This document shows positions 23,918 through 48,042 of a stretch of DNA of 64,000 nucleotides, one piece after another. Numbering within the stretch: position 1 is the stretch's first letter; the number at the start of each line of letters is the position of its first letter. The translations under genes and the position numbers were made by a program. The notes under the pieces were generated by a model. That model had not been told where the DNA came from. It did not search any database and was given only the letters and a program-made list of their open reading frames with translations. Source of the DNA: Photobacterium angustum (GTDB lineage Bacteria; Pseudomonadota; Gammaproteobacteria; Enterobacterales; Vibrionaceae); NCBI RefSeq assembly GCF_002954615.1, contig NZ_MSCJ01000003.1, forward strand, positions 1,178,001-1,242,000, given 5' to 3'.

Positions 23918-25378
23918 TTAAGCATAAGGACTTTGGTAATCGCCCAATTCAATAAGTACACTTTTGGTTTGGGTATAATGTTGTAAGGTTTCTATTCCGT
24001 TTTCGCGTCCAATCCCTGATTGCTTATAACCACCCACAGGCATTTGCGCAGGAGAATCCCCCCATGTATTAACCCAACAGATCCCTGCTTGTAATTGATG
24101 AATAACACGGTGGGCTTTCGCTAAGTTTTGAGTAAACACACCCGCAGCTAAACCATAGTGAGTATTATTGGCGCGAGCGATAACATCGGTTTCATCGCTA
24201 AACTTAATTACCGACATCACAGGCCCAAAAATTTCATTTTGAACATGAGACATAGATTCATCGCAATCAATAAAAACGGTAGGTTGAACGAAATTACCTT
24301 GTGCTAAACCATTATCAGTACATTGGTATCCACCGGTCAGCAAGGTGGCACCACTTTGTTTAGCGGCATCAATGGCTGATAACACTTTTGATAGGTGTGA
24401 TGTTGAAATCAGTGCGCCAATTTGAGTCTCCATATTCATCGGATCACCAACGATTAATAACTCAGTTCGACGCTTAAGTTGCTCTACAAAGGTGTCATAA
24501 ATAGCCTTATGAACATAAACACGTGTACCATGTGTACATACTTCACCTTGGGTATAGAAGTTAGCCACCATTGCCGCAGAAACAGCATGATCGACATTAG
24601 CGTCATCAAAAATGATCATTGGCGATTTGCCACCTAATTCCATCGTGACCGACTTTAAGGTTTGAGCACTATCAGCCATTACCGCTTTACCTGTGCCGGT
24701 TTCACCTGTAAATGACACTTTAGCGATCTCAGGGTGTGCCGTTAGCATCTGCCCTACTCGGTAATCACCTTGTACAACGTTAAATACGCCATCAGGTAGA
24801 CCTGCTTCAGTAAAAATCTCAGCAAGCTTTAGAACCGAAAGTGGTGTTTCTTCTGATGGCTTGAAAATCATGGCATTACCAGCTGCAAGCGCAGGCGCTG
24901 ATTTCCACATCGCAATTTGGATCGGATAATTCCACGCACCAATACCTGCACAAATGCCCAATGGTTCTCGACGCGTATAAAAGAACTGATTTTCACTTAA
25001 AGGTTGCTGCTCACCTTGAAGCCCAGGTGCTAATCCTGCAAAGTATTCAATAACATCGGCACCCGTTTCTATATCAACCGCTATCGCTTCTTGTAACGGT
25101 TTACCAGTATCTGTGACTTCCAATACCGCTAATTCGTCATTGCGCTCTCGCAGTAGCGCCACAGCACGTAATAAAATACGGCTACGCTCAGTTGCCGTCA
25201 TAGCCGACCATATAGCAAACCCTTTTTTAGCTGCACTAATCGCTAATTCAAGATCCGCTTGAGAGGCTTGCCCAATGGTTGCTATCGGTTGACCATTAGC
25301 TGGGTTAATCGTTGTAAATTGAATATCAGACGATGCAGCAACATAGTTACCATCGATATATAGTGATTTCATATCCAT
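23918..25378 (-). CDS. betB: Betaine aldehyde dehydrogenase BetB
   Basis: This enzyme converts betaine aldehyde to glycine betaine with NAD(P)+, the second step of choline oxidation. The 486-aa protein has the general-base Glu in [10 protein letters not shown] (about residue 249), the catalytic Cys in [12 protein letters not shown] (about 286) and the cofactor motif [11 protein letters not shown]. Length matches E. coli BetB (490). The gene starts 16 bp after betI and is followed by betA. Confidence 0.94.
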
Positions 25379-25394
25379 TTGAAACTCTTAGAAA

Positions 25395-25991
25395 TTATAA
25401 TTTTGAATAAAAAGCCAGTTGCTTTTCTAAATAATCATTAATGATCATGCGAGCATTATTCGCATCAATACCTTTTGGATTTAATGTCCCACGTAACCAG
25501 ATACCATCAATTAATGAAGCTATACCATGGGCAACTAATTCAGCTTGAGAAGATGGTAGTAGCCCTTTAAGCTCAATCTTTAAATGCGATAGCAAACGTT
25601 TTTCATTAACTTGCTGTAGACGACCCAACTGTGCGTCATGCATAGCGTAAGACCAAAATGCTAACCATGTTTTCGCTACTTTATTTTCTGCTTGGTAACC
25701 ATCAAAATTGCTCATGATAATGGCATTAATTCGAGCTTGATGATTATTGCGGGGTATCTGGCTTAATGACGTTGTAACGCTCATTGATAAACGACGTAAA
25801 ATTTCACGCATAGTCTCTTCTAATAAACCATGCTTACCACCAAAATAGTGATTGATAATCCCCGTTGATACTCCTGCTTCTTTACTGATCAACGAGATAC
25901 TTGCTGCATGTAAGCCAACTCGTTCAATGACTGCCATAGTGGCATTTACAAGCTGTGGTTTACGAATATCAGGCATTCCAACCTTTGGCAT
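25395..25991 (-). CDS. betI: TetR-family choline-responsive repressor BetI
   Basis: This repressor of the bet genes is relieved by choline. The 198-aa protein begins [19 protein letters not shown], the conserved BetI N-terminus, followed by the helix-turn-helix [29 protein letters not shown]. The C-terminal ligand domain includes [15 protein letters not shown], typical of BetI. GGGAG precedes ATG 25991. It is first in the operon, so it controls its own synthesis; the candidate operator lies about 20 bp upstream of the start codon. Confidence 0.93.
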
Positions 25992-26359: not shown

Positions 26360-28387
26360 ATGAGTATAAAAAATAGAATTAATAATGTTTACCGTTACTT
26401 TGAGCCTAATTTAATCATTATTGGCTATCTTGGTAGCATTGGTTTTCCACTATACTTCTTCGTTTGGCATTATCTTTTCCCTCAACCTTATGAGAACTTT
26501 TTACTCAGGCTATTTTGTGGCGCTTTATTTATTCCATTCGTTTTAAAAGATCATCTTCCTTATTGGTTTTTACGTTATAAGGCGATTCATTTCATTGCCA
26601 CAATCACCATTGGCTTACCTTTCTTTTTCAGCTATATGCTGATTATGAATGATTGGTCTATTCCATGGATCATGTCTTTCATGGCTGCGCTGTTTCTATC
26701 AATATTATTGATTTACGATGCTTACATTATCAGCGCTATCTCCATTATTGGTATAACGTTGGGGGCATTTTTTTCGTATGGCTTCCATCCGATAAACAGT
26801 GAGAATTTTCATTGGGGTTATATTGCAGTCATTAGCTTCTCATATGTGACAGGCATTGCTTCACATTATAGAAATCACATTCATTACGAAGATCAATTAC
26901 TTTTTGCTCGCAGCTTTAGTGCTGGTATTGCCCATGAAATGAGAAACCCTTTCAGCTCACTTTACTCATCCATGGAACTCATGCTTGATATTCTTCGCCA
27001 AAAAAGTGATAACAAAGAAGGTAATGTTAATGAGCTAAAATCTATAATTAGAAGTAATATGACCGTTATTAATAATAGTAATGAAACAATTAACTTACTA
27101 TTAAGCTCTATTAATGAACACGCTATTTCGAAAAATACATTTCAAGAATATTCTATTGTCAATATTATTAAAAGTTCAGTAGACAGTTTTGGCTATCAAT
27201 CATCAAAAGATAGAAGTTTAGTTTCAGTTAATTTTAATAAAGATACAAATTATTTTGGTAGTGATATTTTATTTCGCTATGTGATTTTCAATCTTATGAA
27301 AAATGCTTTTTATTATAAAGAAAAAAGTAATTTCAATATTAATATCAATATCGACATTAATACAAACAATAATATTATAAAAGTAAGAGACACTGGTATT
27401 GGTATTCCAAAGAATAATATTGATGCTATATTTGACGATTTTTTCACACATGGTAAAAAAAATAGTTCAGGTTTAGGTTTGCCTTTTTGTAAAAAAGTGA
27501 TCACAGCATTTGGTGGGGTGATCACCTGTCAATCTAAGTTAGGTGAATGGACTGAATTTACTATCCTTTTACCTAAAATCGATTCAAAATCAGTTAATAA
27601 GCTAAAATATGAGTTAATGTCTAAAAAACGCCTATTATACATAGGTGATAACAACAGTGATGTTTTTGAACTTCAGAAAAACTCATTTTCTCATGGCTAT
27701 AATTTTAACACGGTTAGCCCATTTAAATTAATTGACATACCTTTTGATCAAGTAGATATGATTATTATTAACCTTGATAGTTACAGTGAACATGATTATT
27801 ACTTCTCTAAGTTACAAGATAAACTCGCATTATTAACAACAAAAGTCTTATATCTACACCGTACACCTAAAGCATTAAATTTAATATTAAATGAAAAAAT
27901 TAACTATAAACTAATCAATGCTAATAACATTGATAATAATTTCACCGATCATATCTGTCGATTCTTTTTTATTCATTTTAATAATCAAAAAAATACACCA
28001 CGCTCAACAACAGATACAAAAAGTATTCTACTTGTAGACGATAATATGTCATTACGTATGTATACCGGAATACTCCTCCAACGTAGTGGGTTTCATGTTA
28101 TTCATGCAGAGAACGGTGTTAATGCTCTAAAAAACCTTGAACTAAGCAATGTTGATCTTATTATGATGGATTTAGAAATGCCTTTAATGGGTGGCTTAGA
28201 AGCAACACAACAAATTCGTTCTAATAAAAGGTATGAATCGCATAAAAATACCCCCATTATTTGTTTCTCTGCATCACTTGATGAAAAGCAACAACAAGAA
28301 CTTAGTAAAGTTGGTATGAATGGTTTTATTTTTAAGCCAGCAACTAAAGAGCAAATTTTCGCCAGTATTGAACGCTTTATTAACTAG
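26360..28387 (+). CDS. cqsS: CAI-1 autoinducer sensor hybrid kinase CqsS
   Basis: CqsS senses alpha-hydroxyketone autoinducers and passes phosphate to LuxU. The 675-aa protein has an N-terminal six-helix membrane domain (about residues 18-170), the H-box AHEMRNP with His192, N-box Asn315 in NLMKNAFYY, G-boxes DTGIGIP and GLGLPFCK, and a C-terminal receiver (about 553-675) with LVDD and phosphoacceptor Asp604 in MMDLEMP. V. cholerae CqsS has the same order and nearly the same length, with His194 as phosphorylation site. The adjacent convergent cqsA supports the call. A region between 415 and 545 looks like a degenerate receiver. Confidence 0.92.
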   Translation: MSIKNRINNVYRYFEPNLIIIGYLGSIGFPLYFFVWHYLFPQPYENFLLRLFCGALFIPFVLKDHLPYWFLRYKAIHFIATITIGLPFFFSYMLIMNDWSIPWIMSFMAALFLSILLIYDAYIISAISIIGITLGAFFSYGFHPINSENFHWGYIAVISFSYVTGIASHYRNHIHYEDQLLFARSFSAGIAHEMRNPFSSLYSSMELMLDILRQKSDNKEGNVNELKSIIRSNMTVINNSNETINLLLSSINEHAISKNTFQEYSIVNIIKSSVDSFGYQSSKDRSLVSVNFNKDTNYFGSDILFRYVIFNLMKNAFYYKEKSNFNININIDINTNNNIIKVRDTGIGIPKNNIDAIFDDFFTHGKKNSSGLGLPFCKKVITAFGGVITCQSKLGEWTEFTILLPKIDSKSVNKLKYELMSKKRLLYIGDNNSDVFELQKNSFSHGYNFNTVSPFKLIDIPFDQVDMIIINLDSYSEHDYYFSKLQDKLALLTTKVLYLHRTPKALNLILNEKINYKLINANNIDNNFTDHICRFFFIHFNNQKNTPRSTTDTKSILLVDDNMSLRMYTGILLQRSGFHVIHAENGVNALKNLELSNVDLIMMDLEMPLMGGLEATQQIRSNKRYESHKNTPIICFSASLDEKQQQELSKVGMNGFIFKPATKEQIFASIERFIN

Positions 28388-28449: not shown

Positions 28450-29620
28450 TTACTTCAACGATAGCTCCTCTCGCATCTCTCGACATACAGTAAGTAACGT
28501 CGATATTTGCTCGTCACTAACATCACTATTTAAAGAAAAACGGATCACATTTTTATTTTTAGGGGTCGCTGGTGAACAGAACACAGAACCAAATACATCT
28601 CGAGATTCTAAGTAATCACGGATCACTTCTGTATCTTCATCATTACCACTTTCAAGCGCAATAATTTGTGACTGGCTCTTAATCTTATAGCCAAGGTTAA
28701 CTAAACCACTACGTAATTTCTCAGACTGAATAAACAGCTGGCTACGCTTATCATCTGCATCTTTAATGACATCCAATGTCGCTTTTAATATTTCTAGCTC
28801 ATGATTCAACAGCGCAGAACTGAAAATTGCAGGAAACGCAGTAAATGGGAACGACTTCGCTACATCTTTACTGCATAAAATCGCTCCTGCTCGGTAAGCG
28901 AATGCTTTTGCTAAACTCGCCGTTAAGAAATCAACTTGATCGGTTAAGCCTAATTCAGCGACTAATCCTGCACCATTTTTACCGTGTGTGCCTAGTGAGT
29001 GAGATTCATCTACCAATAAGGCACAACCATAACGATTGGCTATTTCAACTAAATCATGCAATGGTGCAACTGTACCGATTGTACTGTACACCGAATCGAC
29101 CATGATTAACCCAGGACCTTCACGTTTAATTTGCTTTTCAAGATGACGCATATTGTTATGCAGAAATGTCTGAATATTTCCCTCTGCACGTTTTGCTCCA
29201 TCCCATAACGACATATGAGCAAAGAAATCAATATAGATCGGTGTACCTTGAGGGATCAGGGTTTGAATTAATCCGACATTTGCCGCCCAACCCGACTGGG
29301 ACAGCACACATTTTTCAAAACCTGTTAACGCAGCTAATTGTTCTTCAAATGTATCGCCATTTTCAGCTTGATGCTGAAAGACCGCAGACATCACTACTTC
29401 ATGTTTATGATCTGTGATGGCTTTTAAGTGCTTCTGACGAATATGTTGATGCCCTGTGATAGCGAGATAATCATTACTTTGTAATGTTATTGAAGTATCC
29501 GAAGGCGTTTTACCTAATACTAAATGCTTTTTATTTTTTCGTGAGTAAATATCTGCCTCTAGATGTGCATCAATTTTTTTTTATGAAGTTTGGAAGTGAT
29601 TTTACGTTAATATTTTTCAT
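28450..29620 (-). pseudogene. cqsA: CAI-1 autoinducer synthase CqsA, frameshifted at an A9 tract
   Basis: CqsA is a PLP enzyme that condenses an acyl-CoA with an amino donor to make alpha-aminoketones, precursors of CAI-1. From 29581 down to 28450 one frame gives the family sequence: KKHLVLGK, LQSNDYLAI, LSQSGWAANVG, DFFAHMSLWDGA, LVDESHSLGTHG with the PLP Asp, the Lys in TASLAKAFAYRAGA, and the family ending. ATG 29620 starts the expected N-terminus MKNINVKSLPNFIKK but in another frame, ending at TGA 29570-29572. The frames meet at nine A residues (29574-29582, minus strand). Eight A's would give one 389-aa protein, the V. cholerae length; eleven would give 390. As read the gene is broken, unless slippage restores the frame. 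Confidence 0.88.
29574..29582 (-). repeat. Poly-A9 slippage tract in cqsA
   Basis: Nine A residues on the coding strand (T9 on the plus strand) lie after codon 12 of cqsA. The run sits exactly at the frame change. Homopolymers of eight or more A's are known slippage sites for RNA polymerase and hot spots for replication indels. Confidence 0.85.
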
Positions 29621-47834: not shown

Positions 47835-47850
47835 TTTGATTTAAATCAAA
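47835..47850. promoter_or_regulatory. Perfect FNR-type site upstream of katG
   Basis: TTTGATTTAAATCAAA is a 16-bp perfect palindrome that contains TTGAT-N4-ATCAA, the exact FNR consensus. Reading toward katG, TTTAAT (47811-47806, five of six -10 positions) places the site centre about 42 bp before the expected transcription start, the class II activator position. Confidence 0.55.
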
Positions 47851-48042
47851 AAAAAATTATTTACGAAACACAATCTCGTTCGATGGCGTAAATTTAAATC
47901 AATTGAATGATGGTGGCTAATACTATAAATCTATTGATTCAATAGGCGGTAATTATCAAGAGATGAGAAACACAATAATGTTATTCCTAAAAAGAATTAG
48001 GCTTTTGTGTGGGACTTTTAATCTTGTAAGTCATAATTAAAA

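What the first reader, a model, noticed from the sequence alone, without database searches (positions are those of the whole stretch)
28450..29620. cqsA (CAI-1 synthase) is split by a single-base-type frameshift at an A9 tract
The two halves of cqsA lie in different frames that meet at nine A residues (29574-29582). The 5' part (MKNINVKSLPNFIKK...) matches the CqsA N-terminus; the 3' part carries the whole catalytic domain. Eight A's would restore a 389-aa protein, the length of V. cholerae CqsA; eleven would restore 390 aa. This could be a phase-variable switch for quorum-sensing signal production, transcriptional slippage that makes a fixed share of active mRNA, a real loss mutation in a strain that still senses CAI-1 through intact cqsS, or a sequencing error.
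Basis: partly seen in the sequence, partly recalled or inferred. Interest (0 to 1): 0.85.

Follow-up and report, generated by a model that had tools for sequence, protein, structure and literature searches.

The report
Conserved frame break gates quorum-signal gene
In many marine Photobacterium species the gene that makes a bacterial chemical signal is split across two reading frames at a run of eight or nine A's; the split itself appears to be known already, but the comparison made here suggests it is kept by evolution and bypassed by slipping of the copying enzyme rather than of the ribosome.

Summary
In detail: cqsA (minus strand, 28450-29620) is broken at A9 (29574-29582), its parts in different frames. 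It is neither a sequencing error nor a local loss. Of 52 genomes of the genus, 21 have cqsA; in 19 the same tract (A9 in 15, A8 in 4) splits the gene at the same place, and 2 are in frame without it. The 19 group together, their downstream frame is open and under purifying selection, and all 21 cqsA genomes keep an open cqsS. The frame relation is +1 in 16 and +2 in 3; none of the 19 is in frame. The A run is held by codon choice. Best reading: a conserved recoding site, most likely RNA polymerase slippage (inferred; no RNA data).

From recall, its abstract reports the conserved photobacterial cqsA frameshift and CAI-1 made under limiting growth, presumably by ribosome slippage. The core is therefore already known; the frame-relation and codon evidence, which favour polymerase over ribosome, may be new.

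The parts
29570..29620 (-). upstream ORF: 16 codons plus stop, N-terminus of CqsA with the LPxFI motif
   Evidence: an equivalent ORF is seen in 18 of 19 tract-bearing species (the 19th, L089, ends at a contig edge)
29574..29582 (-). A9 tract, the proposed slippage site
   Evidence: same place in 19 of 21 cqsA genes of the genus, A9 in 15 and A8 followed by G in 4
28450..29580 (-). downstream frame, 376 codons plus stop: the rest of CqsA including the catalytic domain
   Evidence: open and under purifying selection in all 19
26360..28387 (+). intact 675-aa hybrid sensor kinase, convergent with cqsA; the CAI-1 receptor CqsS by position and co-occurrence (name inferred)
   Evidence: kinase families; no CqsS model among the 25 shown of 135; found in all 21 cqsA genomes

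Best explanation
This is a conserved recoding site in cqsA of a large Photobacterium group, not a dead gene. RNA polymerase slips on the A8/A9 tract and makes transcripts of several tract lengths. Ribosomes start at the upstream ATG; on the unslipped majority they stop soon after the tract, while on a minority of slipped transcripts the two frames join and CqsA is made. CqsA level, and so CAI-1-type signal output, is held low or made conditional while the receptor CqsS stays intact. Shown here: conservation of the break, of the A run and of the downstream protein, and retention of cqsS. Inferred: that read-through happens at transcription, its efficiency, and its regulation. Recalled from Ke et al. 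2014 (not held here): that P. angustum does make CAI-1 under limiting growth.
For: Break at the same tract in 19 of 21 genus copies, 2 in frame without a tract. No stop after the tract in any of the 19. The 61 codons between tract and MSA[VI]F have dN/dS of at most 0.42 in the 16 of 18 comparisons with L001 where dS is finite. A-run constraint: the codon before the Lys pair is ATA in 16 of 16 Ile and GTA in 3 of 3 Val, both Lys codons AAA in 19 of 19, while ATA is 16% of Ile and GTA 28% of Val codons in long ORFs of the window; in the same genes 0 of 15 invariant Ile columns are all ATA, 0 of 9 Val all GTA, 1 of 6 Lys all AAA. Frame relation +1 in 16 and +2 in 3, the +2 rows lying among the +1 rows: a spread of transcript lengths serves both, one fixed ribosomal shift does not. 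No consensus stem in the 80 nt downstream and no Shine-Dalgarno-like motif in the 20 nt before the tract. A runs of 9 or more are scarce in other sampled genes (1 seen, about 6.7 expected). Precedents: efficient slippage in vivo on runs of 9 A or T (PMC5009743 section 43) and tssM1 with A11 at about 20-25% (PMC4256274 discussion). A review states that P. angustum employs alpha-hydroxyketone quorum sensing, citing Ke et al. 2014 (PMC5289986 passage).
Against: No RNA, protein or signal data of my own. Ke et al. 2014, as I recall the abstract, presume ribosome slippage. In E. coli reporters the host polymerase showed no deletion on the poly(A) runs examined and little insertion (PMC6260861 section 19); transcriptome-wide about 80% of insertions are single bases, homopolymer deletions are rare, and no transcription error restoring a Buchnera frame was seen (PMC5574713 passages). 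The 16 species with the +1 relation need the less favoured length classes. Four species have only A8. In 12 of 19 an in-frame GTG or TTG lies between the tract and the MSA[VI]F start, so part of that stretch could be reached there by other starts. By a crude pattern the upstream ATG has a Shine-Dalgarno-like motif in 10 of 18 rows and in none of the six P. angustum-like rows, the window included. Two in-frame metagenome proteins exist.
Confidence: 0.6

Rival explanations
1. Programmed or conditional ribosomal frameshifting: Lys-tRNA slips on the A run and the ribosome changes frame, perhaps under starvation.
For: A-rich slippery codons; in L101 the upstream frame reads AAA AAG just before a stop, a good -1 context (motif preference recalled). 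Ke et al. 2014 favour ribosome slippage under limiting growth (recalled abstract; title only seen).
Against: In 16 of 19 species the relation is +1, which a -1 shift does not reach, and the relation differs between lineages. No consensus stem or Shine-Dalgarno-like stimulator. The stop after the tract is not fixed in place: it comes later in L093, L099 and L100.
Confidence: 0.18
2. Phase variation: the tract changes length in DNA, switching cqsA on in a minority of cells or strains.
For: P0006 and P0007 are natural in-frame proteins from metagenome assemblies, P0006 close to P0008, which starts after the tract.
Against: 0 of 19 species genomes in frame; at an in-frame chance of 1/3 each this has probability about 0.0005 (my arithmetic). 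Both out-of-frame relations are occupied. Of the 14 top cluster representatives 11 start after the tract and one (P0009) just before it in the downstream frame; some of these could be cut by contig ends, and cluster members were not seen.
Confidence: 0.13
3. cqsA is a pseudogene: sender lost, receiver kept.
For: One genome (G026) has cqsS with no cqsA beside it and no match at E of 1e-60 or better, so receiver-only strains exist.
Against: Downstream frame intact and under purifying selection in 19 species, with synonymous sites near saturation between subgroups.
Confidence: 0.04
4. Translation starts in the downstream frame, at a rare ATT after the tract or at a later GTG/TTG/ATG, with no frameshift.
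For: Database entries P0001, P0002 and P0013 appear to begin at ATT codons; 12 of 19 species have an in-frame GTG or TTG before MSA[VI]F.
Against: The first codon after the tract is GTT in L088 and L089, GTA in L101, ATA in L093 and AAG in L099 and L100, and 7 of 19 species, the window included, have no earlier GTG/TTG, so no start is shared; a late start drops the LPxFI and HLVLGK parts that align to V. cholerae CqsA.
Confidence: 0.03

Closest known systems
Photobacterium angustum CqsA/CqsS frameshift (Ke, Miller, Ng, Bassler 2014, Mol Microbiol 91:821; title seen in reference lists; paper not held; content recalled from its abstract)
   Same: The same gene and the same conserved frameshift with intact cqsS; CAI-1 made under some limiting growth conditions
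   Different: As I recall it presumes ribosome slippage; the two frame relations, codon-level constraint and in-frame metagenome proteins found here may be additions
Thermus thermophilus dnaX transcriptional slippage (PMC5009743, section 43 read)
   Same: A/T run of 9 in a gene with transcripts of mixed length
   Different: There slippage is shown by experiment and gives two working products (recalled); here the unslipped product is a stub
Citrobacter rodentium tssM1 A11 transcriptional frameshifting (PMC4256274, abstract and discussion read)
   Same: Poly-A tract before a premature stop; full protein from slipped transcripts
   Different: Late in the gene, longer tract, both forms required, experimentally shown
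Aliivibrio salmonicida luxN frameshift in a 6-bp homopolymer (PMC2627896, passages read)
   Same: A quorum-sensing gene broken at a homopolymer, programmed frameshifting suggested
   Different: A receptor in one decaying genome; no conservation claimed
V. cholerae CqsA (PDB 3hqt, 2wk7)
   Same: Same family; aligns to nearly all of P0006, a natural in-frame relative
   Different: Continuous gene (its protein was crystallised)

Membership tests
CqsA (alpha-hydroxyketone autoinducer synthase) | passes the curated family cut-off | tested here: met
   NF005526 514 bits, cut-off 428, from the downstream piece alone
CqsA (alpha-hydroxyketone autoinducer synthase) | neighbouring receptor gene | tested here: met
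   convergent in the window; receptor N-terminus in all 21 cqsA genomes with open frames of 676-720 codons; same contig in 20 of 21, not G019 (coordinates)
CqsA (alpha-hydroxyketone autoinducer synthase) | makes CAI-1-type signal | not testable with these tools
   only a review sentence and recall of Ke et al. 2014
programmed transcriptional slippage genes | homopolymer at the frame junction, conserved | tested here: met
   19 of 21 cqsA genes of the genus
programmed transcriptional slippage genes | downstream frame under protein-level selection | tested here: met
programmed transcriptional slippage genes | transcripts of altered tract length | not testable with these tools
   no RNA data held
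programmed -1 ribosomal frameshifting | downstream frame is the -1 frame | tested here: not met
   met in 3 species (+2 relation), not in the other 16
programmed -1 ribosomal frameshifting | stimulatory stem or upstream Shine-Dalgarno-like element | tested here: not met
   (80 nt downstream, 20 nt upstream only)
phase-variable gene | both states among natural sequences | tested here: inconclusive
   0 of 19 species genomes in frame; 2 of the 14 top cluster representatives in frame

The most novel reading that the evidence does not exclude
The output of a quorum-signal synthase is set by RNA polymerase slippage, not by the ribosome: a built-in low and possibly stress- or nucleotide-responsive volume control, kept by selection against the tract-length mutations that would join the frames, and robust enough that lineages changed the frame relation without losing the break.
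Probability: 0.35. Interest if true: 0.75.

Novelty: already known. Interest (0 to 1): 0.42.

Why it matters
The conserved frameshift and its conditional bypass seem to be in print (Ke et al. 2014, by recall). What is still open is how it is bypassed and why it is kept. The finding that the frame relation differs between lineages while the A run is held points to RNA polymerase and makes that directly testable by sequencing RNA. If true, it would be a natural case of a communication signal throttled by transcription errors, kept by selection. Some database entries for this gene carry doubtful starts as a result.

Tried and rejected
Sequencing error: rejected, same break in assemblies of 19 species. 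Second cqsA copy: none. Downstream RNA structure or Shine-Dalgarno-like stimulator: none found. A first consensus fold used wrong coordinates for the minus-strand loci and is discarded. Structure prediction was not run, since solved CqsA structures exist.

Literature: the ten word searches (listings) showed no paper on this frameshift, and I had first written it up as unreported. Because of that, novelty goes to already known, interest is lowered from 0.76 to 0.42, the ribosomal rival is raised and slippage slightly lowered. Passages seen in PMC5009743 and PMC3711429 do not name cqsA or Photobacterium; PMC3285556 does not name Photobacterium; PMC9200695 lists cqsA and cqsS as present in P. leiognathi and P. 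phosphoreum, with no frame break in the passages seen.

Limits: upstream ORF lengths count from the last in-frame ATG; one search gives them from the first (16 to 37 codons). The tree used downstream pieces of 25 rows, 19 with the tract and 6 in-frame rows chosen from many; it warns of long branches, and the order of the +2 rows has moderate support. The run count rests on 380 kb from one contig plus the window, and counts only unbroken ORFs. Fold shuffles were mononucleotide. In one search the best 120 of 3540 proteins were listed; I read P0001-P0021 and P0096; P0020, which starts after the tract region, could not be placed.

Full report
What is there. The coding strand of cqsA reads from ATG at 29620 for 16 codons, through A9 at 29574-29582, to TGA at 29572-29570; the rest of the protein lies in another frame, open from 29580 to 28450. 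The downstream piece is a CqsA by curated cut-off; the genome has no other copy. The window is G000:C3:1178001-1242000 of a 4.89-Mb genome, a Photobacterium close to P. angustum: its 314-aa piece is 99% identical to that of ATCC 25915.

It spans a clade. Among the named loci (best 80 of 83) the Photobacterium loci L004-L015 and L021 show the A run with a stop in the downstream frame just before it, L016 an A9 one base off; in the Vibrio, Grimontia and Enterovibrio loci I saw no break at this site by eye. In all 52 held genomes of the genus cqsA is found in 21 at E of 1e-60 or better. In 19 of the 21 the two parts are in different frames at the tract; 2 (L102, L103) have no tract and one continuous frame. 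By matching coordinates, the 19 include P. angustum, P. lucens, P. piscicola, P. phosphoreum, P. iliopiscarium, P. carnosum, P. malacitanum, P. kishitanii, P. lipolyticum and P. aquimaris. The tract is A9 in 15 and A8 followed by G in 4. The upstream ATG was seen in 18; L089 ends at a contig edge. In a tree of 25 rows the 19 fall on one side of a branch with support 100/99.

The downstream frame is selected as protein. It runs 369-378 codons after the tract with no stop in any of the 19. Against L001 the 61 codons between the tract and MSA[VI]F give dN/dS of at most 0.42 in the 16 of 18 comparisons where dS is finite; L099 and L101 are saturated; this stretch is somewhat less constrained than the rest. 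In 7 of 19, the window included, no ATG, GTG or TTG lies in it; in 12 one does, at differing places, so the claim that only read-through can supply it holds strictly for the 7. It includes HLVLGK and LQSNDYL, which align to V. cholerae CqsA (query P0006). All 21 cqsA genomes keep an open cqsS; G026 has cqsS without a cqsA.

The A run itself is held. The codon before the Lys pair is ATA in 16 of 16 Ile and GTA in 3 of 3 Val, both Lys codons AAA in 19 of 19, while nearby Leu, Pro and Phe codons vary. In loci not titled Photobacterium the matching codon was ATA in 5 of 59 where the motif was found (66 scanned). Within the same genes 0 of 15 invariant Ile columns are always ATA, 0 of 9 Val always GTA, 1 of 6 Lys always AAA. 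In 289 sampled ORFs of this genome A runs of 9 or more number 1 against about 6.7 in synonymous shuffles. Against too much weight on the run alone: 6 of 66 cqsA loci of other taxa have an in-frame A8 or A9 in this part of the gene, L069 at nearly the same place.

Which mechanism. The downstream frame is +1 relative to the upstream frame in 16 species and +2 in 3 (L099, L100, L101); in the tree the +2 rows sit with nine +1 rows (support 95/88), apart from the seven P. angustum-like +1 rows, so the relation changed at least once while the break was kept. A fixed ribosomal shift fits one relation; polymerase slippage, which gives a spread of lengths (PMC5009743 section 43), fits both. No consensus stem or nearby Shine-Dalgarno-like element was found. 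The weak point is direction: in E. coli, deletion on poly(A) was not detected and most insertions are of one base (PMC6260861 section 19; PMC5574713 passages), so in the +1 majority productive transcripts may be few. Photobacterium polymerase has, to my knowledge, not been measured.

Why not a switch or a corpse. Length change should be the commonest mutation at such a tract (recalled), and some such changes join the frames; yet 0 of 19 species genomes are in frame. Of the 14 top protein-cluster representatives, 11 start after the tract, one just before it in the downstream frame, and 2 (P0006, P0007; one source) read through in frame. In-frame DNA therefore arises but is not fixed in the species sampled. 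I take this as a sign that constant CqsA output is disfavoured; a rare DNA-level on-state is not excluded.

What is known. Ke, Miller, Ng and Bassler 2014 (Mol Microbiol 91:821, PMC3959898) studied CqsA/CqsS of P. angustum; I saw the title in three reference lists and a review sentence that P. angustum employs alpha-hydroxyketone quorum sensing. The paper is not held. From recall its abstract states that many photobacterial cqsA genes carry a conserved frameshift with cqsS intact, and that P. angustum overcomes it under particular limiting growth conditions, presumably by ribosome slippage. The core of the finding is therefore known. Possible additions here are the 19-of-21 count, the two frame relations, the codon-level hold on the A run, the in-frame metagenome proteins, and the resulting case for the polymerase; I could not check whether that paper already has them.

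Noticed in passing
G026:C4, L104:4820-6875: A Photobacterium genome (6% contamination estimate) keeps a 685-aa cqsS with no cqsA next to it, a receiver-only state.
   Followed up: partly
window 27455-27462: cqsS itself holds an in-frame A8 run on its coding strand; slippage there would truncate the receptor.
   Followed up: no
window 47848-47856: The only other A/T run of nine in the window lies between ORFs, 5' of a katG-like ORF (named by eye).
   Followed up: no
P0001, P0002, P0013: Database entries for this gene appear to begin at ATT codons, as if annotation pipelines worked around the frame break.
   Followed up: partly
L069:3814-3821 (A8 at -187 from the match): A MAG labelled Rickettsiales has a cqsA-like gene with an A8 run at nearly the same place, in frame.
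   Followed up: no
window 23918-25991: A betI-betB pair (choline to glycine betaine) is divergent from cqsS.
   Followed up: no
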